59,365 bases of DNA from Tissierellales bacterium (GTDB lineage Bacteria; Bacillota; Clostridia; Tissierellales; VENL01). A program made the position numbers and the translations under genes. Shown here piece by piece: positions 43,631-59,365 of the stretch. The stretch covers positions 1-59,365 of the forward strand of contig JANQLB010000126.1 in assembly GCA_028280805.1 (NCBI GenBank), read 5' to 3'. The stretch's first letter is position 1; each line of letters opens with the position of its first letter. Below the pieces are notes generated by a model, which made no database searches, was not told the DNA's origin, and saw only the letters and a list, made by a program, of their open reading frames with translations.

Positions 43631-45292
43631 TTACTTAACCGGTATAGCTTTTTTACTAACTATGTCTTGACCTTTGTCTGAAAATGCAAAATCTATGAAA
43701 GTTTCAGTTACTATATCAATTTCTCCTTTAGTTAACATTAAGAATGGTCTGTAAACTGGATACTTTTCAGATTTTATGTTTTCAACACTAGGCTCTATAC
43801 CATCAACTTTTACAGTCTTTATTTCATCGTTTATATACGATAACGAAAGATAACCAATTGCATCTTCTTTATCTGCTACATTAGCTCTTACCGTACCATT
43901 ACCTTCACCTATTATAGCATCACTAGTAAGAGCACTTACTTTCTTATCATTTATCTTTTCTTCTAATCCAACTATATCTTCAAAAGCTCCTCTTGTTCCA
44001 GAACCAGCTTCTCTACTTATTACGATGATTTCTTTATTACTTCCGCCAACTTCGCTCCAGTTAGTGATTTCACCTTTGAATATTTTTTGTACTTGTTCCA
44101 TTGTTAAATCATTTACAGCTGTATTACTTGGATGAACTACAACAGCAACACCATCAAAAGCTAATATGTGCTTAGTTAATCCCCAATCTTCTTCTTCTGT
44201 CTTAAGGTTTCTTGAAGCAGTACCGATTTGTGCAGTTGCATTGTCTGCAGCCTTAACTCCTGATGAAGAACCTATTCCTTGATAGTTAACTTTGATACCC
44301 GGATATTTAGCCATGAAACTATCTGCTACTAATTCAGCTACCGGCTGTACTGAGGTTGATCCAGCTATTTCAAGTGTTGCATCTAAACTAACCGGGATAG
44401 CACCTTCAGAAGCTACAAGCATTTGTCCTTCTGTACTGAATGCAAAATCTAAGAAAGCTTGAGTAGATTCATCTAACTCACCTTTTGTTAACATTAAGAA
44501 TGGTCTGTAGATTGGATATTTTTCAGTTAAAATATTATCAACTATTGGTTCAACACCATTAACCTTAACTGTCTTTATTTCATCATTTATATAAGATAAC
44601 GACAGATAACCAATTGCATTTTCTTTTTCTGCTACGTTAGCTCTTACCGTACCATTACCTTCTGCTATTATAGCATCCTCTGTAAGAGCACTTACCTTCT
44701 TGTCATTTATCTTTTCTTCTAATCCAACTATATCTTCAAAAGCTCCTCTTGTTCCAGAACCAGCTTCTCTACTTACTACGATGATTTCTTTATTATTTCC
44801 TCCAACTTCGTTCCAGTTAGTGATTTCACCTTTGAATATTTTTTGTACTTGTTCCATTGTTAAATCATTTACAACTGTATTACTTGTGTGAACTACAACA
44901 GCAACACCATCAAAAGCTATTACGTGTTTAGTTAATCCCCAGTCTTCTTCTTCTGTCTTAAGATTTCTTGAAGCAGTACCGATTTGTGCAGTTGCATTGT
45001 CTGCAGCCTTAACTCCTGATGAAGAACCTATTCCTTGGTAGTTAACCTTAATGTTTGGGTTGTGTGCCATGAATCCACCTGCTAATGCTTCTCCTACAGG
45101 TTGCACTGAAGTTGATCCAGCAATTTCAATAACGCCCTCACCAGTATTTTTTCCATTGTTATTTTCTTGTTCGTTTTGATTGTCTTCTCCTGATGTATCT
45201 TTGTCATTATTACAGCCTACTGCTAAAAATGAAACTGCTAAAAGCACTATTAAAGCAATTGTTAATAACTTTGTGTTCTTAAAAAAATTCAT
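43631..45292 (-). CDS. pstS: PstS phosphate-binding lipoprotein with two fused binding domains
   Basis: The 553-residue lipoprotein has a lipobox Cys at residue 27 (LAVGC) and an acidic Asn-rich linker. Two consecutive, nearly identical phosphate-binding domains follow (about 55-304 and 307-553). Both contain IAGSTSVQPV, YQGIGSSSGVKAADN, FDGVAVVVH and SREAGSGTRGAFEDIV, the phosphate-contact motifs. The coding repeats are offset by exactly 756 bp (252 codons), so the gene arose by in-frame tandem duplication. Single-domain PstS is usual. The ATG at 45292 follows AAAGGGG. It is first in the pst operon, with Pho-box-like repeats upstream. Confidence 0.95.
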   Translation of the reverse strand: MNFFKNTKLLTIALIVLLAVSFLAVGCNNDKDTSGEDNQNEQENNNGKNTGEGVIEIAGSTSVQPVGEALAGGFMAHNPNIKVNYQGIGSSSGVKAADNATAQIGTASRNLKTEEEDWGLTKHVIAFDGVAVVVHTSNTVVNDLTMEQVQKIFKGEITNWNEVGGNNKEIIVVSREAGSGTRGAFEDIVGLEEKINDKKVSALTEDAIIAEGNGTVRANVAEKENAIGYLSLSYINDEIKTVKVNGVEPIVDNILTEKYPIYRPFLMLTKGELDESTQAFLDFAFSTEGQMLVASEGAIPVSLDATLEIAGSTSVQPVAELVADSFMAKYPGIKVNYQGIGSSSGVKAADNATAQIGTASRNLKTEEEDWGLTKHILAFDGVAVVVHPSNTAVNDLTMEQVQKIFKGEITNWSEVGGSNKEIIVISREAGSGTRGAFEDIVGLEEKINDKKVSALTSDAIIGEGNGTVRANVADKEDAIGYLSLSYINDEIKTVKVDGIEPSVENIKSEKYPVYRPFLMLTKGEIDIVTETFIDFAFSDKGQDIVSKKAIPVK

Positions 45293-45352
45293 TATATTAT
45301 CCCCTTTCAAAATATTTTTTTTTATAAATCCCTTATCTTTTGTACATGTAGA

Positions 45353-45428
45353 AGTATAGCAATAAAATTTCCTATGTGTGTTTAGGTACTGTTAATGGTT
45401 GGTTAAGATGGAGTTAAAATTGTTTAAG
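45353..45428 (-). promoter_or_regulatory. Pho-box array and promoter of pstS
   Basis: On the minus strand, TTAAC/TTAAAC-like hexamers read outward from 45428. The core sites start opposite plus-strand GTTAA/GTTTA at 380, 391, 402 and 413 (45380-45413), exactly 11 bp apart, with a fifth near 45422-45427. This matches the PhoP-box design of TTAACA direct repeats. A -10 candidate TATACT lies at 45358-45353, about 22 bp downstream of the last repeat, where an activator would replace a weak -35. Confidence 0.72.
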
Positions 45429-45624
45429 CCTTTTCAGTTTTGTATAGAACATAATTTTAATACCTTCCTCTTATTACCATCAGTATATTATGAAGTTCTT
45501 TAAAATACTATATTTCGACATTTATTTTTAAAATATTTTTTTTATTTACCTTTTATATATATGTTTATACAACTTAACAAAGTGTTAACAATGCTGAAAA
45601 ACCCTTATTTTAAAATCCTTTCCA

Positions 45625-45653
45625 TTGAAGTATACTGAATCTTAGTGTATAAT
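45625..45653 (+). promoter_or_regulatory. SigA-type promoter of ychF
   Basis: TTGAAG (45625-45630) and TATAAT (45648-45653) are 17 bp apart, about 42 bp before the ychF ATG. The 45293-45694 interval otherwise holds the pstS regulatory region and AT-rich sequence. Confidence 0.8.
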
Positions 45654-45694
45654 TTATTAGTGCATTTTAGAAGTCTAATCGAAAGGAAGATATT

Positions 45695-46786
45695 ATGAAA
45701 CTAGGAATTGTAGGTTTACCTAATGTAGGTAAAAGTACATTATTTAATGCAATTACATCTGCAAAAGCAGATTCTGCTAATTATCCGTTCTGCACAATTG
45801 AACCAAATATAGGTGTTGTTACTGTTCCGGATGAAAGACTTGATTTTTTAGAGAAAATATATGATTCAAAGAAAAAAATTCCAACTGCTATTGAATTCTT
45901 TGATATAGCAGGATTAGTAAAGGGTGCAAGTAACGGTGAAGGTCTTGGTAATAAGTTTCTATCTCATATTAGAGAAGTTCAAGCTGTAGTTCATGTTGTT
46001 AGATGTTTTGAGGATGAGAATATTACTCATGTGGAGGGAAATATTGATCCTTTGCGAGATATTGAAATCATTGACTTAGAATTAATATTATCAGATTTAG
46101 AAATAATGAGTAGAAGACTCTCAAAAACAGAAAAGCTTGCAAAAAGCGATAAATCTCTTTTAAGAGAAGTTACAATTATTAAGAAAATTGTAGAAGCTTT
46201 AGAATCAGGAAAACCGGCACGAATATTAGAGTTTGATGAAGAAGATACGAAATTCGTTAATCATTTAAATCTATTATCAAATAAACCGGTGCTTTATGCC
46301 ACAAATATCTCTGAAGAAGATATTATTAATGATGGTGATAATAAATATGTAGATTTTGTAAGACAGCACGCTGATAATCAAGGAGCAGAGGTTATTACAC
46401 TATGCGGTAAAATTGAATCAGAAATTTCAGAGTTGGAGGAAGAAGAAAAAAAGGAATTTTTAAGCGAGCTTGGATTAACAGAATCAGGATTAGATAAACT
46501 AATAAAAGCAAGCTATAAACTTCTTGGTTTAATTTCTTTCTTAACCGCAGGTCCAAAAGAAGTTAGAGCATGGACGATTAAGAACGGAATTAAAGCACCT
46601 CAGGCAGCCGGAAAAATTCACTCGGATATTGAAAAAGGCTTTATACGAGCTGAAGTTATTCATTTTACTGAACTGAAAAAATGTGAAACTATTACTAGAG
46701 CTAAAGAAAAAGGTCTGTTAAGACTTGAAGGTAAGGAATACATTATGAAGGATGGAGATGTAGTAGAATTTAGGTTTAACGTGTAA
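45695..46786 (+). CDS. ychF: Redox-regulated ATPase/GTPase YchF (OLA1 family)
   Basis: The 363-residue Obg-family P-loop protein has G1 GLPNVGKST (residues 6-14), NYPFCTIEPNIGVV, a G3 region FFDIAGLVKGAS, and the G4-equivalent YATNISEED. A C-terminal TGS domain follows (RAWTIKNGIKAPQAAGKIHSDIEKGFIRAEVI). YchF hydrolyses ATP and binds ribosomes. GAAAGGAAG precedes the ATG. It is monocistronic. Confidence 0.97.
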   Translation: MKLGIVGLPNVGKSTLFNAITSAKADSANYPFCTIEPNIGVVTVPDERLDFLEKIYDSKKKIPTAIEFFDIAGLVKGASNGEGLGNKFLSHIREVQAVVHVVRCFEDENITHVEGNIDPLRDIEIIDLELILSDLEIMSRRLSKTEKLAKSDKSLLREVTIIKKIVEALESGKPARILEFDEEDTKFVNHLNLLSNKPVLYATNISEEDIINDGDNKYVDFVRQHADNQGAEVITLCGKIESEISELEEEEKKEFLSELGLTESGLDKLIKASYKLLGLISFLTAGPKEVRAWTIKNGIKAPQAAGKIHSDIEKGFIRAEVIHFTELKKCETITRAKEKGLLRLEGKEYIMKDGDVVEFRFNV

Positions 46787-46886
46787 ATAAAAACGTCCAC
46801 AAAAATAATTTTTCATCATCCACAAACGCTTTAATTTCAATGTTTATAGCTGATTTTTAGAAATTAAATAAAGCAGTATTATGTAA

Positions 46887-47081
46887 GTTTACTGCCATTT
46901 TACTGTAATCAATATAAAAACACCTTTATCTCTTGACTATTTGATTAAGGGAACATCATCTGAGACTAATAAACCGAAGGATGAAACTGAGCTACAACAA
47001 TTAATTAGTAAATGTTCACAGAAAGAAATTTATGTCATTACAGATATAGTTAAAGCTATTTTGCCTCATATAGAACTGTAG
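46887..47081 (+). pseudogene. C-terminal remnant of an XRE-type regulator
   Basis: An open frame without a start codon encodes TPLSLDYLIKGTSSETNKPKDE and ELQQLISKCSQKEIYVITDIVKAILPHIEL, ending in TAG. The P-L-S-L-D-Y-L-x-x-G segment followed by a helical tail is typical of the end of XRE-family helix-turn-helix regulators. The DNA-binding part is absent and a stop codon lies immediately upstream (46884-46886). It is probably debris from an integrated element. Confidence 0.5.
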
Positions 47082-47637
47082 CTTTTTTAACCTGATTAAA
47101 GCAAGTGTTTTTGAATTTTATTAATAAATATAAAATAAATTCTATTATTATATTTGTAAATTTTTCAAAAATTCTATAAATTATAAAAATGAATATAGAC
47201 TCAGCATGAGATATTACCGCTTGGAAAAATTGTTTTTATTAAAAGAACTCTGTCAGGTTAGTTTTTAGTTGATACTATACCCTGGCAGAGTTAATTATTA
47301 TACTTATTCTAAGTGTTTCCAGAAAATATATATAATTTTTTGTCCTATAGATTTTCAGAATTAGGCTAAGCTATATATTCAAGCTATTCTATTGTACCTG
47401 ACCAATTCTTGTACAAATTGATTTTTTCACTCAAATGATTAAAATTATCCATTCTACTCCTTTAAGTAACATTTGTTTTATAATATATGCAAATCAATAT
47501 ACTACAGTTTAGTATTTTCTTGTCAAAAAATCCTATAACCATTAATTTTCCAATCGCTATAGTCGATATTCCAATTTGCTATTTCATATTAGCTCATGCA
47601 TTTGTAAATTAAACTTATAAAAATTCAAAAAATTAAT
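47082..47637. other. Gene-poor, AT-rich decayed stretch
   Basis: I see no intact gene. Stop codons are frequent in all frames I examined. A hairpin at 47246-47292 is the only structured element. The region separates the conserved ychF from the defence-like operon and looks like an integration boundary. Confidence 0.5.
47246..47292. repeat. 12-bp inverted repeat
   Basis: AACTCTGTCAGG (47246-47257) and CCTGGCAGAGTT (47281-47292) pair over 12 positions on plus-strand RNA with one G-U; the minus strand has one mismatch. On the minus strand it is followed by CTTTTAATAAAA. It could end the defence-like operon (about 345 bp past its last stop) or the remnant gene. Confidence 0.5.
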
Positions 47638-48318
47638 CTATATTTCTATCTTTAAATTACTTTCAATTATAACTTTATTATTTTCATAACAAGCACTAAA
47701 ACCCTTAACTTTCATTCCTCTATCAATACATCTAAGAAGTAAGTTTGAATACTCATTGAATTCTTTATTGATTATCACTTTTTTTACTACCGAGCTTAAT
47801 GAAACAAAATAGTAGTCTATTCGCCATCCTAGCTCTAATAGCTTTAACAAGTTGTTTAGCTGCTTTAACGCCCGTTCAGAAAAAACTGTTGGAAATAGTG
47901 ATTGTTTTCTTATAGCAATCAATCCTTTCGCTTCAACTATCAACTTTTCTTTACCATGAAGCAATAGATCTGCTTTATAATCATTAATAGTTTTTTCTCT
48001 AAAAATTTTTGTATAAAAATAATTTTTATTATTCATCTTAATATATTCTTCAACTAAGCTGTTGACAATGTTAAGATTTAGCATAATATACTTTCCATAA
48101 TACTTTACTGCAAAGACACTGTATTTTGTCCTTGTTTTTTTTCCTTTGTTAACAGTTAATAACACCTTTTTATTTTCCAACTTTATATAGTTATCTAATT
48201 TGGATGAGCTAGGTATATAACATTCGTGTATTTCATTTTTAATTAATATATTGCAAAGAAATCTATTTTTACATTCATTTATAAAAATACCCTCAACTAT
48301 ATCTCGGTTTATTTCCAA
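47638..48318 (-). CDS. SfsA-like nuclease
   Basis: The 226-residue protein follows the SfsA layout: an N-terminal OB-like domain (CYIPSSSKLDNY..., VNKGKKTRTKYSVFAV), then a PD-(D/E)xK-type domain with D117 in YKADLLL and E129-A-K131 in LIVEAKG, followed by VFSERALKQLNNLLKLLELGWRIDYYFV. SfsA proteins are housekeeping DNA/RNA nucleases. This one is divergent (the FPDAVTERG motif reads FPTVFSERA) and is the last gene of the operon, 37 bp after the FtsK-like gene. The start is a TTG at 48318 with only a distant GAGAGG. Its role as an effector nuclease is inferred from context. Confidence 0.65.
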   Translation of the reverse strand: MEINRDIVEGIFINECKNRFLCNILIKNEIHECYIPSSSKLDNYIKLENKKVLLTVNKGKKTRTKYSVFAVKYYGKYIMLNLNIVNSLVEEYIKMNNKNYFYTKIFREKTINDYKADLLLHGKEKLIVEAKGLIAIRKQSLFPTVFSERALKQLNNLLKLLELGWRIDYYFVSLSSVVKKVIINKEFNEYSNLLLRCIDRGMKVKGFSACYENNKVIIESNLKIEI

Positions 48319-48355
48319 AGTTCTAACAGCCTCTCTTTTTGAAATTTCATTACAA

Positions 48356-51300
48356 TTAAATTTTTTCTTCTAAATATTCTTCCAATTCTTCCTCACTAAT
48401 ATATAATCCCTGAATTCTTGAAATATTACCATTGAGAGATAGTAGCATATCACCTTTTCCTAATAAGTCTTCTGCTCCTGGAGCGTCTAAGATAGTCATA
48501 GAGTCTTGATGAGCTGGCAATCTAAAGGATATCCTACAAGGAATATTTGCTTTCAAGTTTGAAGTTACTATATCTGCACTTGGCCTTTGGGTAGCAATAA
48601 CAAGATGTATTCCAACATTCCGAGCTATATACGCTAATCTTGTAACCTTTGCTTCAAACTCTTTTCTCAAACTTAGCATATCTGCTGCCTGTATTAAGTC
48701 TGCATATTCATCAATAACAACTACTAACGGCTTAAGCTGATTGTGAGGGTTCTTTTTATTATAGGAAAAAAGATCTCTTGCTCTGCAGCTCGTTAATAGA
48801 TTCTGTCTTCTTTTTAATTCTTCATCTGCTAATGTACTTATCATTTCCACAGCTTCTTTAGGTTCAATTATAACTTTCTTATCCCTAAGATACTGTAATT
48901 GATTAAAAAATACAAAGTCTGTTCTTTTTGGATCAATTAAGATAATTTCAATATTCTCTTGTGAGTGTTTATGCATTAGACATACCAAGACAGTATATAG
49001 GAATATAGTCTTTCCCGAACCAGTTGAGCCTGCAACAAGCATGTGCGGAGCCTTGGCTATATCAATTATTTTAAAATCTCCACTTCCTTCCTGACCAACA
49101 ATAATATTTAAATTTCCTACTAGGGTGTCATTTGGTAGAAGAAACAAGTTATGATTCAATCCTATAACATCACTCTTTTCTCTTGGAATATCAATATAAA
49201 CAAGGTTTGTTCCTCTTTCGTTTCCGATAGCCACTTCAAATGTTGCTTCCATTTCTCTTGTAATATCAGCTTTATACTTTACTATTTTTTGCAATGTTTC
49301 ACCTGATTTTAATCTTACTCTAAACCTTATATACCTTGGTGCTACATGAACTTTCTCGGGATCAATTTCTCTAATATTAATGTTGTAGTCATCTAATATT
49401 CTGAATAAACGCTTTGTTTTTGCATCTATGCTCTCTTTAGATATTGAAAAAAACATCCCTAAATTGTCATCCGTAGTAGGCTTAAGATCATTGATTTTAC
49501 TATAATTTGTTTTATTAGAAGCTGTATTTTTGTCTTTATTAATATCATTATCTATATAATCTTTTTCTTTAACTTCATCTATAGAATTATTATTAATATT
49601 CATTATATTATCTAAAAATACACTATCATTCTTATTCTTCATATCCTCATAATCGTTCTTATATTTAGTATTCCCCATATTCTGCTCTTTCTTAAAGATA
49701 CTCTGACCAGTGTTTTTCATATATTCAAAATTCAATGCTTCAATATCATTGCTTAGCTTTTTCATTAATTCATTACAATTTTGAACTACTTTTTTTGCAA
49801 ATTTATTGTTGATCTTCACTAGTTTTAAAGGTTTTTCTTTGTCAAATGTTATTTCTTCTACTTCTCCGTGCTCTCCAAAATCAATAAAATATATAAATTG
49901 ATTAATTTCTATATCAATTTCTCCAGCAAACAATTTATTTAATTTTTCAGTCCAGTCCTTTTTAAGTCGTTTTGGTAAGAGCAACTGATAAAATGCTTGA
50001 AAAATTTGAAGCCTTAATACTTCTCTTCGTGATGTGCTAGTTATTCTACTTTTATGCATAAATACTTCTTCAATTATTTTGTATATTGCATTTACTTGTT
50101 CGACAGCTCTCCCATGTATATCATTTTTATCGTAATCAATTGAAAAATCATTTGAATGTGTTTTGACTTCAATAATATCAATATATGCCTTATGATTATC
50201 AAACCTTATTCCAATCAAATCTGATAAATAATTTTCTTCTCTTTCATCTAACCATCTATGAGCCACATCAGTATCTAAGCTTGCTAAAATGCTCACTCCT
50301 GACTTATATCTATACCATTCATATGCTACAGCTAGACCCAAATTACCTTTAATTTGATTCTCATTAAATGATCTAATACTAGCATTTGAGATTGAGTTTA
50401 ATATACCTTTTTCATTTAAAAGTTGTATATCTATTATTATATTTTGTACACACTCTTCTTTAGGATCATAATTTCCAGAACGACGTAAAAAGCTATTAAA
50501 TTCTCTATTATATTTATCCCATTTATCAGTGTATACACCTATATCTCTATAATTTATAGATTTATAATATAACCTTTTTCTGGTATCCAAGCTATCGAAC
50601 TCTATATTCTTCAAGTTTTGATCAGCAATTATTAGCCACTCAGTCTTACTAAGTAGGTTGTTGAATTGTTTTTTTGATATTGGCGATTCTATCAAAACAC
50701 TATTGTGATAATCTCTGGGCTTATCATTAAGCTTTTGGATTAACTTATTATAGTCTGAAAAGAAATATCCTTCCGAAGCTGGAGTTATAAGAACATTATC
50801 ATAGTACTGATCATATTCAAAAACATTTGGTATGCATAGTGGATGAATTTTCACAAGTTCATTAGAAGATACATTTCCTGCTAACTTCTGATTAGGATCA
50901 AATAATATAATCATATGGTATTCATCATTAGCTTCTTCAGTAAATTCCTCATAGCTTATTTTTTTATCGTGTAATTTTATATTATAATTTGGATTGCTAA
51001 TAGATTGAAATCTACCAAGTATACTTTCATCTACATTATCAAAACTACTCCAATCTTTATCAGTTTCCTTTGTTCTATAAATATGCAAATCTAAACCTAA
51101 TACTTCATGACTAGAATTCTTTAGCACTTCCTTAAAAACATATAGTGCCTTCCCCATATCCGGTGGATTTACCATAGCAATCCTTAATCTAAATAGACTA
51201 TGAGGAAACAGATTTATGTATTTGCTTGTTAGCATTTGAATAACTTCTAGTCCATGAGCTAAATTTATTACTTGCTGTTCAGTAGAATATATAGGTAAGT

Positions 51301-53035
51301 TTCCTAGCTTTGATACTTCTGGTATAATGACATATTCAGTTTTTGTAATAAATCCACTTACATAGGTTGCAGTTAATGGATTTGGTATTTCATTTGATTT
51401 CCTTATTACAAATTCCTTATCATCATTATCTAAATTAGATATCTTAATTTCATTTGCAAGTTCAATATATTTCCATAAGTATATTGGGTTTAAAGATGTT
51501 GGAATTGCATGTAAAAAATCATCACCTTTAAAGTATACCATGTCCAAAGCGTTAATTAATAGAATTACATGCTTTGCACCCCTAGAACTATATTCAATCA
51601 TTTTACTATAATTATCATTAAGAACAGATATCAAACTACTGTATATATCAATATATCTAGAGTACAATTTTAGTTTATCTGCACTTTCTGCTACCTTTAG
51701 CATAGGTGCATCTGCTAATCTAAATTTAGAGTCTACAATCTTATATCTAACTTCAACAAAACTACTGAATATAGATAGTAGTTTTACATCTTCTCCTATA
51801 TCCCCTTGAAAATTACCTAAAAACTCTTCTATCTCTTTAATAATATCCTCATTAAAACTTTCATAGTCATATCTTTCAAGATTCTTCAAGCAATCTATAG
51901 GATTGCTTTCATTTACATAAATAATTCCTCCATAGCTATCACTACTGACAAAAGTATCTATTAAATTTACAATTTCAGGTATAATCTCAATATTAATTGG
52001 TTTGTCATCAGTACTAATTTTTATTCTTCCTTTTTTATTTTTATCCTGTTCTTCAACATGCTTGTTAAATTGCTCCTCAATCGTGTCTAGTACTTCTTTT
52101 ATTTGCTCTTCATCCTTGTCTATTATTAAGCTTGCTCCTAAAGCTTCTGAGGATTTTATCTTTGGCTTCTTTATATTTGGCTTATTTTCTGTAGAACTTC
52201 TCTTACGCCTGCTTACAGACTTAAAAAACTCTTCTACCTCACTTAAAAAAAGATTCTTTAAAATTGCTATATCTCTACTCCTATAAAACTTTAGAATATT
52301 AGAGCTTAAGTAAATATTACTTTTCTTTGCTTTTGATTGGATAATCTTTCTATCAGATTCATCCAAAGTGCTTATCCTTACTACCATCTTATAATTTTCT
52401 AATAGTAGTTTTCTAATTTTTGAAGGCTTATTAGCTTGTTCTAGCCTTACATCTATCATTAACCCTAATTTATATAACTCTGAAATAGCTTTTTCAGTAT
52501 AATTTTTTTCATTTGTGTCCTCCAAAGCCTTATAATAATTCACTAGCTTTAAAAGAGATACAGTTTTTGCTAATTCTTTTGAATTTAGAGCCTTCCATAA
52601 GTTTTTAACTGGCTCATTTTTTGAAACTTTATTTATACCTGCTTTACAAATGTGTCTGTATACTTCGTCAACCTTTATTGAACTATACCATCTTAATGAT
52701 GACAACTTAGGTACATATCTCTTTACAATTACAATTCTAGTTAATTTAGGGTCTCCATTATTTCTATATTCTTCTGCATCTTCAACCGAATAGAATAAAT
52801 TATTGTATATGTTAAATTTTTCTTTATATTTTTCAACTTCATGCTTCTCCAGTCCAGCAAAAAATATACAGAAGTCATGATCATTTAATTGATCTCTTCT
52901 TGAGAATAAATTATCAACAAAATACTCATATGAAAATTCAGTAAAATCTTTGATTACTATTCCATATTCCTTCTCATTCACTTTATTAAAAATCAAATCA
53001 GATATAAATACTGCCAATAAATCATAACCATTCAT
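48356..53035 (-). CDS. FtsK/HerA-type DNA translocase with internal nuclease-like motif (DptH-like)
   Basis: The 1559-residue protein carries a C-terminal FtsK/SpoIIIE motor: Walker A GSTGSGKT (1336-1343), IILIDPKRTDF, Walker B VVVIDEYADL (about 1438-1447) and VIATQRPS (about 1479). Upstream, D939...D953 and E956-V-K958 (SDLIGIRFDNHKAYIDIIEVK region) fit a PD-(D/E)xK nuclease core. A basic, charged linker lies near residues 275-300 and a long low-complexity Asn/Asp/Lys linker between motif and motor. Its size, motor type and place after two smaller genes match DptH/DndH of phosphorothioation-dependent restriction. AAAGGAGAG precedes the ATG, 1 bp after the previous stop. Homology to DptH is inferred, not proven. 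Confidence 0.62.
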   Translation of the reverse strand: MNGYDLLAVFISDLIFNKVNEKEYGIVIKDFTEFSYEYFVDNLFSRRDQLNDHDFCIFFAGLEKHEVEKYKEKFNIYNNLFYSVEDAEEYRNNGDPKLTRIVIVKRYVPKLSSLRWYSSIKVDEVYRHICKAGINKVSKNEPVKNLWKALNSKELAKTVSLLKLVNYYKALEDTNEKNYTEKAISELYKLGLMIDVRLEQANKPSKIRKLLLENYKMVVRISTLDESDRKIIQSKAKKSNIYLSSNILKFYRSRDIAILKNLFLSEVEEFFKSVSRRKRSSTENKPNIKKPKIKSSEALGASLIIDKDEEQIKEVLDTIEEQFNKHVEEQDKNKKGRIKISTDDKPINIEIIPEIVNLIDTFVSSDSYGGIIYVNESNPIDCLKNLERYDYESFNEDIIKEIEEFLGNFQGDIGEDVKLLSIFSSFVEVRYKIVDSKFRLADAPMLKVAESADKLKLYSRYIDIYSSLISVLNDNYSKMIEYSSRGAKHVILLINALDMVYFKGDDFLHAIPTSLNPIYLWKYIELANEIKISNLDNDDKEFVIRKSNEIPNPLTATYVSGFITKTEYVIIPEVSKLGNLPIYSTEQQVINLAHGLEVIQMLTSKYINLFPHSLFRLRIAMVNPPDMGKALYVFKEVLKNSSHEVLGLDLHIYRTKETDKDWSSFDNVDESILGRFQSISNPNYNIKLHDKKISYEEFTEEANDEYHMIILFDPNQKLAGNVSSNELVKIHPLCIPNVFEYDQYYDNVLITPASEGYFFSDYNKLIQKLNDKPRDYHNSVLIESPISKKQFNNLLSKTEWLIIADQNLKNIEFDSLDTRKRLYYKSINYRDIGVYTDKWDKYNREFNSFLRRSGNYDPKEECVQNIIIDIQLLNEKGILNSISNASIRSFNENQIKGNLGLAVAYEWYRYKSGVSILASLDTDVAHRWLDEREENYLSDLIGIRFDNHKAYIDIIEVKTHSNDFSIDYDKNDIHGRAVEQVNAIYKIIEEVFMHKSRITSTSRREVLRLQIFQAFYQLLLPKRLKKDWTEKLNKLFAGEIDIEINQFIYFIDFGEHGEVEEITFDKEKPLKLVKINNKFAKKVVQNCNELMKKLSNDIEALNFEYMKNTGQSIFKKEQNMGNTKYKNDYEDMKNKNDSVFLDNIMNINNNSIDEVKEKDYIDNDINKDKNTASNKTNYSKINDLKPTTDDNLGMFFSISKESIDAKTKRLFRILDDYNINIREIDPEKVHVAPRYIRFRVRLKSGETLQKIVKYKADITREMEATFEVAIGNERGTNLVYIDIPREKSDVIGLNHNLFLLPNDTLVGNLNIIVGQEGSGDFKIIDIAKAPHMLVAGSTGSGKTIFLYTVLVCLMHKHSQENIEIILIDPKRTDFVFFNQLQYLRDKKVIIEPKEAVEMISTLADEELKRRQNLLTSCRARDLFSYNKKNPHNQLKPLVVVIDEYADLIQAADMLSLRKEFEAKVTRLAYIARNVGIHLVIATQRPSADIVTSNLKANIPCRISFRLPAHQDSMTILDAPGAEDLLGKGDMLLSLNGNISRIQGLYISEEELEEYLEEKI

Positions 53036-53036
53036 A

Positions 53037-54524
53037 TTATCTCTCCTTTATAAAGATTGTGTTTAGTCCATCGGCATATTTTTTCCCATACCCCATTGAC
53101 ATAAATATATCTGTAATTATTTCAGCGTTTTCTACAAATTGTCCAATCAAATCTCCAGGTGCATTATTACTTATGTTCCATTTTACTAACCTATTATAAT
53201 CTTCTTCAGGATTATATCCTACAATTATTCCAAAATTGTTCCAAAGTCTTTCGCCAAATTCATTTACAGTTATTTCTTCGTACATTTCAGCATCAATCAC
53301 AGTCATTAATAATGTTTCTAGAAAAAAAGGTACTGGAGTAAATCTTTTTCTCTTTGTGTTCTGTGGTCCTATTAATCCAATCTTTAATCCAAAACTACTA
53401 ATAAAATCTGCTGGACTTGTGAAATCACTAGTAAAGAGCATAAATCTTGTTGCTTCAATAAAAGACTTATAGTGATCCTTTATATCTTCATAAAACCCCA
53501 TATATATTGATAGATACATATTATTTCTTGCGTTACTATCCATTCCTTTTTTTACTTGTAAATCCATTCCATTTATTAGGTCAATAAGTTGATCATGCGA
53601 ATATGTATTATAACCTCTTATATCGAATATTTGCTTTAAACCAAATTCAAAATACTCTTCTACTCTTTGCTTAGCAATAACTAAAGATTCTGCACTTGCA
53701 TATTTAATAGCTGATAAATCTGCCTTAGAATCAAAAACTATTGGTACATTATCATCGATAGAATAATTGCTGTTTATGTCCAAAATTTTTGAAATCAGAT
53801 GGAAGATAATTAAAAAGCAAGATATTAAAACCACTCTTTGTAAGGTTATTAATTTATCCTCTTTCAAAAACATACAATTCTTAGTCAAAGTTTCTAGAGC
53901 ATGCCTAATTTTTAGCTCTGTTTTTCCATTTTTTATTTTTTTATCCTGCAATTTCTTTTTATTTGAAGCATTTTTAACTTCTTTTGTATAGTATTTTACA
54001 ATCGGTTCTGCAATCATACTATATTCATCATCCTCAGAATCGAGACAATTTTTTATCATATCAATACAATTTGACTTGTCGCCAAAGGATTTTTCAGTTA
54101 AAATATCGTATAAGAAACTATGCATGCTTGATTCAGATGGAACACTACCTCTTACCTGTCTCTTTGAAACTATATTAATAACAGTATTAGGCAATGATGC
54201 ATACGCACTACTATCAGGATTAAACAATTTTCTTAAGTACAATCTTAAAGTGTTTAGCTCCTCATCTGATATATTATCTACTTCATTAATAATTTCTCTA
54301 AACTCTTCTTTTATTTTTCCAGCACTGTTTACTTCTTTTCCCCCAGAGCTCCTTACAACCCATTTATTTAAATCTTCAATATCATAGTTTTTTTCTAATA
54401 TTAATCTAAATAAACCATTTGCTATATGTACAGGCTTCGTACCACTCGAGGTTGGTGTATAACCTATATAATCATCAAATACTTCTCTGGCAAATTTATC
54501 TAATTTATCCTTTTTCCCAGTCAT
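53037..54524 (-). CDS. Uncharacterised protein in DptG position
   Basis: The 495-residue protein has no motif I recognise. It is mainly helical, with a Lys-rich middle (about 180-205) and a hydrophobic segment (about 230-250; VVLISCFLIIFHLISKI) that could be a membrane helix or buried core. The C-terminal half is richer in aromatic residues (MYLSIYMGFYEDIKDHYKSF). It lies between the DptF-like ATPase and the FtsK-like motor, the place of dptG in dptFGH loci, with similar length. AGGGGG precedes the ATG. It is probably a structural subunit of the same complex. Confidence 0.45.
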   Translation of the reverse strand: MTGKKDKLDKFAREVFDDYIGYTPTSSGTKPVHIANGLFRLILEKNYDIEDLNKWVVRSSGGKEVNSAGKIKEEFREIINEVDNISDEELNTLRLYLRKLFNPDSSAYASLPNTVINIVSKRQVRGSVPSESSMHSFLYDILTEKSFGDKSNCIDMIKNCLDSEDDEYSMIAEPIVKYYTKEVKNASNKKKLQDKKIKNGKTELKIRHALETLTKNCMFLKEDKLITLQRVVLISCFLIIFHLISKILDINSNYSIDDNVPIVFDSKADLSAIKYASAESLVIAKQRVEEYFEFGLKQIFDIRGYNTYSHDQLIDLINGMDLQVKKGMDSNARNNMYLSIYMGFYEDIKDHYKSFIEATRFMLFTSDFTSPADFISSFGLKIGLIGPQNTKRKRFTPVPFFLETLLMTVIDAEMYEEITVNEFGERLWNNFGIIVGYNPEEDYNRLVKWNISNNAPGDLIGQFVENAEIITDIFMSMGYGKKYADGLNTIFIKER

Positions 54525-54534
54525 AAATTTCCCC

Positions 54535-56082
54535 CTATTTAAAAATATATTTATTCTCCATAATTGCTATTTCGTACTTTTGATTATTTGTTCTATCTTG
54601 AATAGTGAAACTATTTTTCTTTCCATTCTGAGAATATTTTTTTAGATTATTTATAAATTTAAATATTTTAAACTTATATTTTTGCGGTATTAATTGAGGT
54701 GGATATCCTTCTTCTATTTGAGTTAGCAATTTAAAAAAATTAAAATCAATTTTCAAGTCAATATTTTGCTTTTTATCACTAACTCTAAACATAAAGTGGT
54801 CAGGCTCATATTCCATATCAACTAATGCTTCAGATAATGACGGTATTAATAATTCAATTTCTCTATAATAAATATCTCTATTCGATATTGCTGTTTTAGG
54901 CTCATTTTTAAAATTATATTGATGCATTGTCCATATTTTCAATTCATTTTCATCTATATCACTTGGATTAAAAAACTTATTTATACCTAGAATAATTCTT
55001 TTTTTTATTTCCTCAGGCCTGTCCTGAACCATAGCTAAAACATTTCCAAAATTATAAAAACTTTCCTTCATTTGTTTAAGCAGTTCTTTGCCTTTTTCGT
55101 TTTCAAAATAAAATTTTCTTTTTAGTGCTTTAAAACTTTCCTTAGCCTCATCTATGTTTTCAATATCTCTTGGTAAGACTATGTTCTCATATTCAAAATG
55201 CCAACTCTCAGTCATTTCTCCATTCCATAATTTCTCGTCAATTTCTGGTATTGTAAAATTTACTGGATCAAAAACTTTTATTACTTCAAATAAATTATTG
55301 TTTCCATTAAAAAGTGAATTATAATAATATCCTGAGTTATTTCCTTCTAACAAATCTTCATTAACAAAAATATATGCAAATAAGCCTATTATATCTCTAG
55401 TCACAAAGTGTATACCGGTGTTAGAAATTAATTTGAATATTTCAAACAGTCTTTCTTGAACCTTTGGTAGAGATAAGGCATAATGATTATTACTCACATA
55501 TTTCTTTTTTTTATCCTTTTCCAGAGCTGTATTTATAAGTTCTAGCATTAATTTCATTGATCTTTCTAAAAAATTATCCACTAATAAGTTTCTACAGTTT
55601 AAATCAAGTATGACTATTTTATCTTTATTGTAGGTAGTATTCTTTTCATAAACAATACTTTGTTTTCTTTGATTTTCAATAGCTTTATAATACTCTTTAT
55701 ATTTATTTTTTAGTTTATCTAGAAGTTCTTTCAATGGATATTCGTTTATCGCTATAATACAAGGCCTTTCGTCTTTTATAGCTACATCAAGCTTTTGAAT
55801 GAATTCATCATAATCCTTTACTCTATTAGCATCTAACTCAACAAAAGTATTCTTTTCACTTAACACATTCTTCACCTTATCTAAGTAATTAATTATATAT
55901 GTCTTTCCATCTCCAGGGTTTCCTGTTAGGAATACTACTCTTCTTTCATCTACAAACTTCTCAATCATTTTTTCAACATCTGATTCTATATGGAGTAGTT
56001 CAAGGTGTTCCTTTTCAAAAACATCAGCATAGCTATTTCTATTGTTATACAGCTTAGAAATAAAATCTAAATTTAATTCCAT
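54535..56082 (-). CDS. P-loop ATPase, DptF-like
   Basis: The 515-residue protein has Walker A GNPGDGKT at residues 54-61, followed by a short acidic motif (FVELDANRVKDYDEF) and a putative Walker B or sensor strand (CIIAINEYPLKEL, about 107-119). A second strand, KIVILDLNCRNLL, is near 155. The rest is helical without known motifs. The N-terminal LLHIESDVEKMIEKF before the P-loop, and the order ATPase-unknown-large motor, recall DptF of the DptFGH restriction module. AGGGGG precedes the ATG, 12 bp after the DruA-like stop. Confidence 0.58.
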   Translation of the reverse strand: MELNLDFISKLYNNRNSYADVFEKEHLELLHIESDVEKMIEKFVDERRVVFLTGNPGDGKTYIINYLDKVKNVLSEKNTFVELDANRVKDYDEFIQKLDVAIKDERPCIIAINEYPLKELLDKLKNKYKEYYKAIENQRKQSIVYEKNTTYNKDKIVILDLNCRNLLVDNFLERSMKLMLELINTALEKDKKKKYVSNNHYALSLPKVQERLFEIFKLISNTGIHFVTRDIIGLFAYIFVNEDLLEGNNSGYYYNSLFNGNNNLFEVIKVFDPVNFTIPEIDEKLWNGEMTESWHFEYENIVLPRDIENIDEAKESFKALKRKFYFENEKGKELLKQMKESFYNFGNVLAMVQDRPEEIKKRIILGINKFFNPSDIDENELKIWTMHQYNFKNEPKTAISNRDIYYREIELLIPSLSEALVDMEYEPDHFMFRVSDKKQNIDLKIDFNFFKLLTQIEEGYPPQLIPQKYKFKIFKFINNLKKYSQNGKKNSFTIQDRTNNQKYEIAIMENKYIFK

Positions 56083-56094
56083 ACCAATAGCCCC

Positions 56095-58161
56095 CTAAAA
56101 ATCTTTACTTAATATTACAGAATTTTTATTAAAGTCTCTAAATCTTGTCTCAATATCAACATTATATATCCTCTTGTAGAGCCATCTTTTCTTCCAAAAC
56201 TCTATTAGTTTTTTTGTCTCATTATCTATATTATCTTTATCAAAGTAATACTTTACATCATTTTCTATTCCAGTTAAGAATTCTTTTGTATTCTTCGCTA
56301 ATTCAATTCCATATACAATTCTGTAAAAGTGATGTTTTAAAAAGTCTGAATATGTTATCCCAATAGCTTTAAGTCCAGCTACTATCAGTCTCATACGAGG
56401 GCTAGTGCCTTCGCCAAAAACATTATTAATCTTTCTCCCTCCATCAATTATTTCAAGCATTTTTGTTATTAATGAAGTTGTCTCTTCAGAAAAATAAACT
56501 GAGCCATAACCTTCTGTTTTTCCTAACTCCTTAAATTGTAGATTGAAGTCTTCATCTTGTTCAATTTTTATTCTATTATACTGGCTACTTCCAATACTGT
56601 ATAAACTGGTAGTTCCTAAGAATGCAAGTCTCGAATCTCTTATAACTTTTTCCCCTTTCATTCTAGATGCAATTTCACTAATTTGCTTCTTATATTTCTC
56701 TTCATAATCATTAATTGCTTTAGGACTACATGTTAAAATACTTACTAATTTTCCTCCTAACAACTCATTGTACGGAGGGATTGCACCGCATACAATGATT
56801 TCCATCATATTTGATCCTATTTTATTTTTTCTGTTAGCTATTAATGCAGTAGTAATATTTCGTCTTTCATCAGAAGAATTTAAAAGCCTTTCTAATTCTT
56901 CAACACTATTATCCGTATTTATTTCCTTATACCTGATTTTTGCTTTTAGCAACTTTGCCAATTCACCAGCTCTTTTTTTCTTAAATAAATTTGTGTTTGA
57001 TTCTTCAAAATAATTGATCTCGCCCTTACTTCTTTTATTATTCAAATCTGACCTTCTAAAATATTCAGCCAGTCCATTTAGCTTTTCAACAATTTCCTCA
57101 TTAGGGTTTAATATATCATCTTTGTTTAGTAAATCATCCCATCTTATTTCTTCTATTGCTTTTTCAATAAAATCTTTTAGTGTATGTAACACGTCTCTAC
57201 TATATTTTTTAATTCGCTCCTTATACTCATAATCTGATTCTAAATAAATCATTTTCTCGTTTGGTCTGCTATTATATATATTGCCTTTTAGCATCACTCT
57301 GTTCTTTTCCACTTTATACTTTCTCATCATGTTTTCTTTTATATTTTCTATAGTCCAGCCTATGTATCTATCTCTTACGTTTAAATTCAGCATTGTATTT
57401 CCTAAAGCTGCTATTCCTATTACTGGATTAAATGGCTGAGCCGCATCTCTTACTAAGTAATAAACATTTCTTCCTGGAGTATTTTTATATGGGATAGACC
57501 ATGTATATCTAAAATACCTCCATATCTCTCTTAATTTATATCCCGTAAATTCATCTTTTGCATCATCAGCCAATTGTAAATATGGTTCGACAATTTCTTC
57601 GTTAATTTCGCAATTATTATCTTTTAAGTTCTTATATTCTTCAATTTTAGATAATAAAACTTCGCTATCTCCTATTAAATTCTTTATACTGACTTTCTTT
57701 CCTTCAATTTCTTTTTCTTTTTCCATTCTATTAATGAATTTTTTTACACTTTCTTTATTCAGCTGTGCTTTTCTCTCAATATCTAAGCTTTTTCGCAGAA
57801 CATACTTCGATGTATTTTTTTTCATCTCAGGAGGTCCTAGATATATGATGTCCTGAAAAATTCTAATCCTCCACCCCTGTACTAATAAATCTCTTAATAT
57901 ACATAAACTTACTAACAGTTTTCTCAAATCATTAGAATTATTTTGATTTAATATGGACATCTTTTCTCTAATTATTTCATTCATATATTTATATCTATAT
58001 TCATGCATTTTTTGACTGATTTTGTAACAAGTATTAGATAAGTCTTTCTTATAGCTACTTTTCAATGTTGGATCAAATTTTATATACCCACTAATATATT
58101 TTTCTTTATCTTCATTAACAGAATATGCTATATCCAGATATTCAGCTAAATTACTTTCCAT
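56095..58161 (-). CDS. DruA-like protein (DUF4338)
   Basis: About 688 residues. The central region contains the DUF4338 hallmark: YFRYTWSIPYKNTPGRNVYY, then LVRDAAQPFNPVIGIAALGN and VRDRYIGWT (about 215-275). The C-terminal part has a second hallmark, SSQYNRI, EGYGSVYFSEETTSLI (about 548-565) and LKHHFYRIVYGIELAKNTKEFL (about 610). DruA is the signature protein of type I Druantia anti-phage systems; its activity is not settled. The usual partner helicase DruE is not in the window. I prefer the ATG at 58161, behind AGGGTG; the ATG at 58176 also overlaps the preceding gene. Confidence 0.72.
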   Translation of the reverse strand: MESNLAEYLDIAYSVNEDKEKYISGYIKFDPTLKSSYKKDLSNTCYKISQKMHEYRYKYMNEIIREKMSILNQNNSNDLRKLLVSLCILRDLLVQGWRIRIFQDIIYLGPPEMKKNTSKYVLRKSLDIERKAQLNKESVKKFINRMEKEKEIEGKKVSIKNLIGDSEVLLSKIEEYKNLKDNNCEINEEIVEPYLQLADDAKDEFTGYKLREIWRYFRYTWSIPYKNTPGRNVYYLVRDAAQPFNPVIGIAALGNTMLNLNVRDRYIGWTIENIKENMMRKYKVEKNRVMLKGNIYNSRPNEKMIYLESDYEYKERIKKYSRDVLHTLKDFIEKAIEEIRWDDLLNKDDILNPNEEIVEKLNGLAEYFRRSDLNNKRSKGEINYFEESNTNLFKKKRAGELAKLLKAKIRYKEINTDNSVEELERLLNSSDERRNITTALIANRKNKIGSNMMEIIVCGAIPPYNELLGGKLVSILTCSPKAINDYEEKYKKQISEIASRMKGEKVIRDSRLAFLGTTSLYSIGSSQYNRIKIEQDEDFNLQFKELGKTEGYGSVYFSEETTSLITKMLEIIDGGRKINNVFGEGTSPRMRLIVAGLKAIGITYSDFLKHHFYRIVYGIELAKNTKEFLTGIENDVKYYFDKDNIDNETKKLIEFWKKRWLYKRIYNVDIETRFRDFNKNSVILSKDF

Positions 58162-58564
58162 TCTGCTCACCCTCATCCTGTATGTCTAATACATTATTTT
58201 CTAAAAATTTATCAATAAGTTTCCTAATTACTGTAGATCTATCTTCATTATTTCTTACACAATAATCTTCTAATGCATTAAATGTCTTTTCTTCTAATCT
58301 AACAGAAACTTTTCTACTTTTTGTTTTACTATAATTGCAAGGTCTACCTTTCTTTCTCTTTTTTATGGAAAATTCATGATTTCTTTCGTTAAATACAATA
58401 TCTAAATATCCATATTTTTTTAAAAAATTCATCTCTCTAATGCACATATTATCCCATTGTTTAGCTGGAGAGGCATGTGTATAATTAACTCTTTCTACTC
58501 GTTGAATAAGCATTTTATAAAACTCATTAAACTCATCAAAATTCTTACATCTCTTTTCAGTCAT
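58151..58564 (-). CDS. Ribbon-helix-helix DNA-binding protein
   Basis: The 137-residue protein has an N-terminal helical region (1-60) of unknown type and a basic linker (KKRKKGRPCNYSK). A C-terminal MetJ/Arc-type ribbon-helix-helix follows (RKVSVRLEEKTFNALEDYCVRNNEDRSTVIRKLIDKFLE, about 84-122). Such proteins usually autoregulate. A 9-bp-arm palindrome lies 15 bp upstream of its start codon (58579-58599). It overlaps the DruA-like start by 11 bp, indicating coupled translation. Confidence 0.75.
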   Translation of the reverse strand: MTEKRCKNFDEFNEFYKMLIQRVERVNYTHASPAKQWDNMCIREMNFLKKYGYLDIVFNERNHEFSIKKRKKGRPCNYSKTKSRKVSVRLEEKTFNALEDYCVRNNEDRSTVIRKLIDKFLENNVLDIQDEGEQNGK

Positions 58565-58578
58565 ATAATCAACCTCAC

Positions 58579-58599
58579 ATTTATTGTCCTACAATAAAT
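58579..58599. promoter_or_regulatory. 21-bp palindrome, candidate RHH operator
   Basis: ATTTATTGT-CCT-ACAATAAAT is a perfect inverted repeat with 9-bp arms, lying between the BrxA-like gene and the RHH gene. Ribbon-helix-helix factors bind short symmetric operators near their own genes, so this is the best operator candidate in the locus. Confidence 0.5.
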
Positions 58600-58613
58600 C
58601 ATAATCAATCTTA

Positions 58614-59225
58614 TCATTTTCTATTTAATATTTCAATTATTCTATTATCACCCAAGCCAATAACGTATTTTATTAATTCTTTTTTTATATCAGCAGACAC
58701 AATTCTCTTTTCTTTTATACCTATTAGTAATCCTGATTTATAAAGTATGTTAATATAAACCTGTCCTAGTTTAGTTCTAACATAAGGCTTCCAACTAGCT
58801 ACTACTAAACTTTGATTTTTCTTAGCTTCAAAGAAATTAACAATATCTCCTTTTGCTATTACTTTATTACTAGAATAAATCCTTGCTGCATAAACTTCCT
58901 TAACAAATTCATAGAAAAGTAGATTGTTTTTCATAACTAAATATAGTGCAACTATCTTACTATCATTCTCATTTCCATTAATTAATAAATCTGATAGATA
59001 ATCATCAAGAAAAATCATTCTTCTAATAATAACAGGAATAATTCTTTTAACCTGTTTGATTGATCTATAGTTAAATAAATTCTCTTCTATAACCCTTGAT
59101 CTAATTTCTTCATCTTTGAATCCTGATAATTTTAGCTCAACAATAGTTTTAGTTTCCTCATATAAAAAAGGCTCACTTGTTAAACTAGAGCTATATTGCA
59201 CTACACTATACAACTTGTTGTACAT
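58614..59225 (-). CDS. brxA: BrxA-family protein (DUF1819)
   Basis: About 203 residues matching the DUF1819 pattern: YSSSLTSEPFLYEET near the N-terminus, GFKDEEIRSRVIEENLFNYRS, a central LLFYEFVKEVYAARI, KGDIVNFFEAK and SWKPYVRTKLGQVYINILYKSGLL. BrxA is a small helical DNA-binding protein first seen in BREX phage-exclusion loci. No BrxB, BrxC, PglX or PglZ follows here. The ATG at 59225 is 8 bp behind GGAGG; an in-frame TTG directly precedes it. It is the first gene of the operon within view. Confidence 0.8.
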   Translation of the reverse strand: MYNKLYSVVQYSSSLTSEPFLYEETKTIVELKLSGFKDEEIRSRVIEENLFNYRSIKQVKRIIPVIIRRMIFLDDYLSDLLINGNENDSKIVALYLVMKNNLLFYEFVKEVYAARIYSSNKVIAKGDIVNFFEAKKNQSLVVASWKPYVRTKLGQVYINILYKSGLLIGIKEKRIVSADIKKELIKYVIGLGDNRIIEILNRK

Positions 59226-59248
59226 CAAACATACCTCCTAAATAAATA

Positions 59249-59280
59249 GGGACTAATATAGCCTTAACTATACTAATCCC
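59249..59280 (-). promoter_or_regulatory. Leader hairpin upstream of the brxA-like gene
   Basis: On minus-strand RNA, GGGATTAGTATAG pairs with CTATATTAGTCCC over all 13 positions (two G-U) around a 6-nt loop; on plus-strand RNA two C-A mismatches break it. A TATTTATTT tract and then the GGAGG ribosome site follow. It may be an attenuator in the brxA leader or the terminator of a gene beyond the window. Confidence 0.6.
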
Positions 59281-59304
59281 TTGATTTTGCTTTTATTCAC
59301 TTGT

Positions 59305-59333
59305 ACTGTAATTTACTGCAACAGTACTGCAAC
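59305..59333. repeat. ACTGCAAC direct repeats before the defence-like operon
   Basis: ACTGCAAC occurs at 59315-59322 and 59326-59333 (11-bp spacing), preceded by a related TACTGTAA. Helical phasing suggests a protein-binding site. It lies about 90-110 bp upstream of the brxA-like start, in the likely promoter region. No clear -35/-10 pair could be fixed. Confidence 0.4.
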
Positions 59334-59365
59334 CTCTACAATATTAAATGGAAATAATCATATTT

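What the first reader, a model, noticed from the sequence alone, without database searches (positions are those of the whole stretch)
47638..59225. Candidate undescribed defence system joining BREX, Druantia and Dpt-type parts
Seven minus-strand genes with gaps of -11 to about 49 bp encode, in order, BrxA-like, RHH, DruA-like, DptF-like ATPase, DptG-position protein, DptH-like FtsK motor with nuclease motif, and SfsA-like nuclease. BrxA belongs to BREX, DruA to Druantia, and DptFGH to phosphorothioation-dependent restriction. I know of no described system with this combination, and the defining partners of all three are absent from the window. The tight spacing and the bordering gene-poor DNA argue for one mobile functional unit.
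Basis: partly seen in the sequence, partly recalled or inferred. Interest (0 to 1): 0.93.

Follow-up and report, generated by a model that had tools for sequence, protein, structure and literature searches.

The report
DruA-DptFGH restriction-type defence operon
A DNA motor-nuclease gene set (DptF-DptG-DptH) sits beside, or is fused to, a gene for a protein modelled as an acetyltransferase (DruA) in many unrelated bacteria and archaea; it likely defends cells against foreign DNA, with DruA predicted to write a new kind of protective DNA tag in place of the sulfur tag used by the known DptFGH systems.

Summary
DruA-DptF-DptG-DptH, often with SfsA, recurs as a block: of 67 non-redundant relatives of this DptF, DruA lies directly upstream in 36, is fused in 28 and sits at the far end in 1; one is cut by a contig end and one lacks it. 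BrxA was found beside no other copy, nor RHH, so "joining BREX" is not supported. These DptFs form a clade apart from nine canonical dptF, whose loci lack DruA. Of 40 genomes with the block, dndC is over cut-off in 1 and DUF4007 in 4; the window's has neither. DruA is modelled as a GNAT acyltransferase with a conserved CoA-loop-like motif. DptH has nuclease and motor motifs and a methyltransferase fold without catalytic motif. I infer that DruA marks self DNA by acylation and DptFGH restricts unmarked DNA; this is untested. PMC10853773 noted DUF4338-DndF fusions as occasional and guessed a suicide effector.

The parts
58614..59225 (-). BrxA-family DNA-binding protein; accessory gene of this copy, not a recurring part of the block
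   Evidence: PF08849 4.1e-46, PADLOC BrxA 164.8 bits; no second copy among 7129 ORFs of 85 sequences, in 16 further loci, or beside the block in 39 other genomes
58151..58564 (-). RHH (Arc-like) DNA-binding protein, probable regulator; overlaps the start of druA; found only in the window
   Evidence: phrog_876 3.8e-9 and weaker Arc-like families; Pfam ParG/RHH below cut-off
56095..58176 (-). DruA (DUF4338): modelled GNAT-fold acyltransferase, predicted DNA-marking enzyme; core gene
54535..56082 (-). DptF-like P-loop subunit; core gene
   Evidence: SspF 3.7e-12, DndF 6.5e-11; hhalign 99.7% to canonical DptF; LTGNPGDGKT and NE in the Walker B position conserved
53037..54524 (-). DptG-like subunit, likely DNA-binding; most often the fastest-diverging core gene
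   Evidence: SspG 8.7e-6; hhalign 94-97% to canonical DptG; lowest of the four identities in 894 of 1540 pairs
48356..53035 (-). DptH-like motor-nuclease: methyltransferase fold without catalytic motif (about 590-840), PD-(D/E)XK nuclease (D939, E956, K958), FtsK/HerA ATPase (about 1306-1555); core gene
47638..48318 (-). SfsA-family PD-(D/E)XK nuclease; frequent accessory gene of the block
   Evidence: PF03749 3.9e-14, PF17746 2.4e-7; full length in 30 of 67 clusters; of 36 loci with it, 32 have it behind DptH on the same strand, 3 in front of the block, 1 on the other strand; D and E-x-K conserved
59303..59333 (.). repeated TACTGCAAC-type sites upstream of brxA, possible operator
   Evidence: two exact 9-mers 11 bp apart plus a third near copy; function not tested

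Best explanation
The operon core DruA-DptF-DptG-DptH, often with SfsA, recurs as one unit across bacteria and archaea, and it is likely a restriction-type defence in which DruA, modelled as a GNAT acyltransferase, is predicted to mark self DNA by acylating a base and the DptFGH complex is predicted to translocate along and cut DNA that lacks the mark. Shown by calls: recurrence, fusion, co-divergence, the GNAT-like model and conserved loop, the nuclease and motor motifs, the missing methyltransferase motif in DptH, and the rarity of dndC and DUF4007 in the host genomes. Inferred: that DruA acts on DNA, that the mark is an acyl group, that DptG and DptH read sequence or mark, that SfsA is an extra nuclease, and that BrxA and RHH only regulate the window's copy.
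Confidence: 0.4

Rival explanations
1. DruA is a backup or suicide effector: when DptFGH is triggered or blocked, the GNAT acetylates host proteins or charged tRNA and stops growth, as proposed for DUF4338-DndF fusions.
Against: DruA is in 65 of 67 clusters rather than occasional and has the highest identity of the four core subunits; effectors are usually swapped. It is a protein of about 690 residues with conserved positions in both halves, not a small toxin.
Confidence: 0.25
2. DruA is a regulator or licensing subunit: it acetylates DptF/G/H or binds acyl-CoA or DNA ends to switch the complex on, with no DNA mark.
For: Repeated fusion to DptF puts DruA inside the complex. DruA also lies beside other ATP-driven partners, DruE helicase and GHKL ATPases.
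Against: Leaves self/non-self discrimination unexplained in genomes without dndC and DUF4007.
Confidence: 0.22
3. The block is an ordinary PT-dependent restriction module that works with a PT system elsewhere in the genome.
For: All three Dpt subunits are homologous to canonical ones. Paenibacillus athensensis carries dndC over the cut-off; 7 more genomes have weak matches; 4 have DUF4007.
Against: 35 of 40 genomes, the window's included, have neither dndC over cut-off nor DUF4007; separate clade. SspD itself was not searched and many genomes are drafts; DUF4007 as a marker of SspB is recalled.
Confidence: 0.05
4. All seven genes form one BREX-Druantia-Dpt hybrid in which BrxA is a required part.
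For: BrxA and RHH lie 49 bp apart and RHH overlaps druA, so they are probably co-transcribed.
Against: BrxA and RHH beside no other copy of the block examined, though 72 of 78 loci with DruA hold at least 1200 bp in front of it; no PglZ match in the genome. The contig ends just upstream of BrxA.
Confidence: 0.05

Closest known systems
DndFGH / DptFGH / SspFGH (PT-dependent restriction; standalone DndFGH of PMC10853773)
   Same: Three homologous subunits in the same order; DptF with Walker A and NE in the Walker B position; DptH with degenerate methyltransferase fold, PD-(D/E)XK nuclease and FtsK/HerA motor.
   Different: Separate DptF clade; PT markers rare in hosts; DruA beside or fused to DptF; often SfsA nearby.
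DUF4338(GNAT)-DndF fusions noted by Rakesh, Aravind and Krishnan 2024 (PMC10853773)
   Same: The fused form is the same architecture.
   Different: There it is one of six listed N-terminal fusions, called occasional and read as a suicide co-effector. Here DruA is near-obligate for this DptF clade, split in 37 of 67 clusters, with SfsA in 30 of 67. The main text has no 'DruA', 'Druantia' or 'SfsA'; its supplements were not seen.
Druantia type I
   Same: DruA family; DruE is near the block in L003, L037, L038, L040, L042, L067, L074, L078 and L123.
   Different: No DruE match in the window's genome; DptFGH is not part of Druantia as I know it.
BREX-related capture systems (PMC12839542)
   Same: A HerA/FtsK motor joined to BREX-type parts and sometimes a GNAT.
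   Different: Those have PglZ, DUF6079 and DUF4007; neither PglZ nor DUF4007 was found in the window's genome; DUF6079 was not searched.
Phage Mom DNA-acylation systems
   Same: GNAT superfamily and coupling to nuclease domains (PMC7824862 passages).
   Different: No sequence link found; substrate of DruA unknown.

Membership tests
DndFGH/DptFGH-type restriction complex | DptF, DptG, DptH homologues in order | tested here: met
   hhalign 99.7 (nine canonical sequences), 94-97 (six) and 99.8% (six)
DndFGH/DptFGH-type restriction complex | DptH with REase motif and FtsK/HerA motor | tested here: met
   D939, E956, K958 invariant in 48 rows (8 of 56 rows were left out, one of which, L057, has lost the motif); FtsK_SpoIIIE 3.2e-33
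PT-dependent restriction | dnd or ssp modification genes in the same genome | tested here: not met
   No dndC and no DUF4007 match in G000; over cut-off in 1 and 4 of 40 genomes. SspD not searched; G000 is 89.5% complete
Druantia type I | DruA | tested here: met
   PADLOC DruA 478 bits
Druantia type I | DruE helicase | tested here: not met
   No match in G000, while 12 of 14 control genomes ring with this broad helicase model; present near some related loci
Druantia type I | DruB, DruC, DruD | tested here: inconclusive
   None among the seven window proteins; the rest of the genome was not searched for them
BREX | BrxA | tested here: met
   PF08849 4.1e-46
BREX | PglZ | tested here: not met
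   No PF08665 match in G000; genome 89.5% complete
BREX | BrxC ATPase and PglX methyltransferase | not tested
   Not searched in the genome; not among the seven genes
GNAT acyltransferase (DruA) | GNAT fold | tested here: met
GNAT acyltransferase (DruA) | acyl-CoA pyrophosphate loop and alpha-4 tyrosine | tested here: inconclusive
   C462, G463, Y468, G474, K475 and Y532 invariant in 70 rows; assigning them to the loop and helix is mine
DNA-acylating GNAT (Mom-like) | acts on a DNA base | not testable with these tools
   needs nucleoside mass spectrometry

The most novel reading that the evidence does not exclude
DruA is a DNA base acyltransferase, the first such mark in a cellular defence system, and one shared modification enzyme serves three different machines: DptFGH, the DruE helicase set, and GHKL-ATPase partners. 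The operon is then a new restriction-modification class in which acyl marks replace phosphorothioate.
Probability: 0.28. Interest if true: 0.88.

Novelty: new variant of a known kind. Interest (0 to 1): 0.62.

Why it matters
DptFGH is known as the cutter that reads phosphorothioate DNA, yet PMC10853773 reports that the modification genes are commonly decoupled from DndFGH and calls the features enigmatic and paradoxical (abstract). A near-obligate partner modelled as an acyltransferase offers a concrete, testable answer for one clade: a different mark. It would also give DruA, whose biochemical role is open as far as I know, a first assay, because the DptFGH version is modular and has natural fusions.

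Tried and rejected
BREX membership: rejected; BrxA and RHH do not recur beside the block and PglZ gave no match. PT dependence as the general rule: rejected. A methyltransferase inside DptH as the modifier: rejected, since 0 of 48 rows carry [SDN]PP[YFW] and 1 of 48 a GxGxG in residues 586-730. A conserved separate modification gene in the flanks: not found; the largest flank clusters reach 8 loci (a DruE-like helicase and a small HTH protein), and methyltransferase families match at most 2 of 81 downstream members each. Searches were given 110 of 131 listed upstream ORFs plus the window's BrxA, 80 of 117 listed downstream ORFs plus the window's SfsA, and each shows only its first 25 families. 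Solved structures by sequence: none for DruA, P-loop noise for DptF, two chance-level hits for DptG, FtsK-type motors and distant P-loops for DptH. RNA families at 44000-59365: none. tRNAs in the window: none. DruA in phage records: no match.

Rows dropped or special: L079-L081 (weak or no HMM match). L001 is the window's own copy; one search's 87 ORFs include it, one search does not. L019 and others with cut DptF are not in the 67 clusters. Split includes L039, where DruA lies convergent behind DptH. L065, L072, L075, L078 hold a second DptF, divergent, without its own DruA; L069 is a broken copy. L007, L020 and L054 were counted as having DruA, with cut or broken other parts. Searches were given the window's genome and 39 of the 80 related loci. 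L127 (G447) is probably the same genome as L034 and is not counted. The tree is a quick one without the mixture model; it warned of long branches meeting, among them part of the canonical set, L076 and L126.

Papers: PMC10853773, abstract, outline, passages and sections 19, 20, 21, 25; PMC12839542, passages and section 36; PMC12458937, abstract, outline, passages and section 5; PMC12904381, passages and part 1 of the reference list; PMC7824862, PMC12707154 and PMC13192584, passages only. All others: search listings only. What KacT and AtaT do, and DUF4007 as a mark of SspB, are recalled; the DptG wHTH reading rests on PMC10853773.

Full report
What is there. The seven minus-strand genes are real and tightly packed. 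Pfam, PADLOC, NCBIfam and PHROG scans give BrxA, an Arc-like RHH protein, DruA, DptF, DptG, DptH and SfsA. DptF, DptG and the N-terminal part of DptH are weakly or not seen by these scans, but profile-profile alignment to canonical Dpt proteins (nine DptF, six DptG, six DptH) confirms all three.

Recurrence. A DptF alignment (A2, 45 rows) brought 80 loci in genome contigs, the best 80 of 81, and 3 in viral contigs. HMMs grown from the window proteins were run on 7129 ORFs of 85 sequences. Of 87 DptF ORFs over 60 bits, 36 are fused to DruA, 42 have DruA directly upstream on the same strand and 9 have neither; those nine are the window's own cut copy (L001), a contig edge (L015), a convergent DruA (L039), second copies in four two-set loci (L065, L072, L075, L078), half of a broken gene (L069) and one true absence (L076). 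78 loci with near-full DptF give 67 clusters at 90% identity; 65 have DruA: 28 fused, 33 split with DruA within 375 bp upstream of DptF, L007, L020 and L054 with DruA upstream but cut or broken parts, and L039. Full-length SfsA is in 30; of the 36 loci with any SfsA, 32 have it behind DptH on the same strand, 3 in front of the block and 1 on the other strand. Isolate genomes cover Bacillota, Bacteroidota, Myxococcota, Actinomycetota and haloarchaea; MAG records add further phyla but may be mis-binned.

Starting from DruA. In plasmids, each of the 7 records with DptF also holds DruA. DruA matched 14 plasmid records in all; 4 near-full DruAs have no DptF in the record and 3 are partial. Of those four I opened two: L120 has a GHKL ATPase in front of DruA, L121 a DruE behind it. 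In viral contigs 3 of 8 DruA loci have DptF (the same contigs as; DptH seen in 2), 3 have DruE and 2 have neither; a GHKL ATPase lies directly upstream in 4. So DruA is shared between contexts.

A separate clade. Nine canonical dptF (six named dptF by their records, dnd genes annotated beside four: L128, L130, L132, L134; L124, L131 and L133 bear no annotation here) score 38-95 bits against the window-type HMM, and none of their stretches has DruA. On a quick tree they are one side of a fully supported branch and the window-type DptFs the other; fused and split need at least 4 changes. L076 and L126, related DptFs without DruA, are long branches at the base and their place is unsure; the tree warned of long branches meeting.

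DruA is core. In 56 loci with all four full genes DruA has the highest identity in 1499 of 1540 pairs (medians DruA 35, DptF 26, DptG 22, DptH 23%), and the four identities correlate at 0.95-0.98. In 34 split clusters DruA and DptF distances correlate at 0.909 against at most 0.352 in 2000 permutations. In the 33 loci with SfsA, SfsA is more conserved still (43% against 38% for DruA).

No common PT mark. dndC is over its cut-off in 1 of 40 genomes with the block (7 more under it) and DUF4007 in 4 of 40; 35 have neither over cut-off, the window's included. In G232 a weak dndC match lies beside a DUF4007 gene. The window's genome also has no PglZ or DruE match. Of 199 genomes, the window's and 198 relatives, only the window's has a real DptF match (631.6 bits; 50 others pass E 0.001 but at 24.4 bits or less), so the block is sporadic.

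BrxA and RHH. Neither was found again among the 7129 ORFs; BrxA also not in 16 further loci. With its Pfam model BrxA is in 6 of 40 genomes; the five other copies share no sequence with the block's locus and lie on contigs of other lengths. They are probably regulators of this copy. The contig ends about 140 bp upstream of brxA, so a lost neighbour cannot be excluded.

Mechanism. The block has a motor, a nuclease, likely DNA-binding parts and one candidate modifying enzyme. I therefore favour restriction with DruA as the marker, by analogy with Mom GNATs that acylate adenine and are found fused to nucleases, and in line with a review that lists Druantia as modification-based, though by methylation (its source preprint is not held). 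The published alternative is a suicide effector. I put about 0.4 on the marker model, 0.25 on the effector and 0.22 on a licensing role; that the block is a real recurring system I hold at about 0.93.

Print status. Searches for DruA with BrxA or DptH, Druantia with SspH and BREX, DUF4338, DruA with Druantia, DndFGH names, SfsA with antiphage terms, Druantia with DndFGH, DruE and Druantia type I listed no paper whose listing, or the parts I opened, describes this block; only the fusion note in PMC10853773 touches it. Most listed papers were not opened, lists were cut, and subscription papers and most preprints are outside the library.

Noticed in passing
window 43631-45310 (-): A PstS-like phosphate-binding protein of 559 aa made of two very similar tandem copies of the binding domain (read from the translation; the name is mine).
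   Followed up: no
window 59303-59333: Short repeats (TACTGCAAC twice, 11 bp apart, plus a near copy) upstream of brxA; a possible RHH operator.
   Followed up: partly
L065, L072, L075, L078: Two divergent DptF genes with one DruA between them; DptG and DptH of the second set seen in L065 and L072. Perhaps a paired version of the system.
   Followed up: no
L003, L037, L038, L040, L042, L067, L074, L078, L123: A DruE helicase lies near the DruA-DptFGH block, so Druantia-type and Dpt-type parts can lie around one DruA.
   Followed up: partly
L120, L142, L143, L144, L145: GHKL (HSP90-like) ATPase gene directly upstream of DruA, with or without DruE: a third DruA context.
   Followed up: partly
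L135 (Natronorubrum aibiense plasmid): dptF, dptG and an FtsK-type gene with two divergent Dam-family methyltransferase genes and no dnd gene annotated in the stretch: perhaps another replacement mark.
   Followed up: no
L126 (G279:C25): A DptF relative (123 bits) without DruA, followed by ORFs of 504, 1042, 340 and 568 aa: possibly another variant.
   Followed up: no
L083, L084 (IMG/VR contigs): The fused form with SfsA lies on contigs filed as viral; L084 has a DptF identical to that of Muricomes intestini L051, so carriage on a mobile element is likely.
   Followed up: partly
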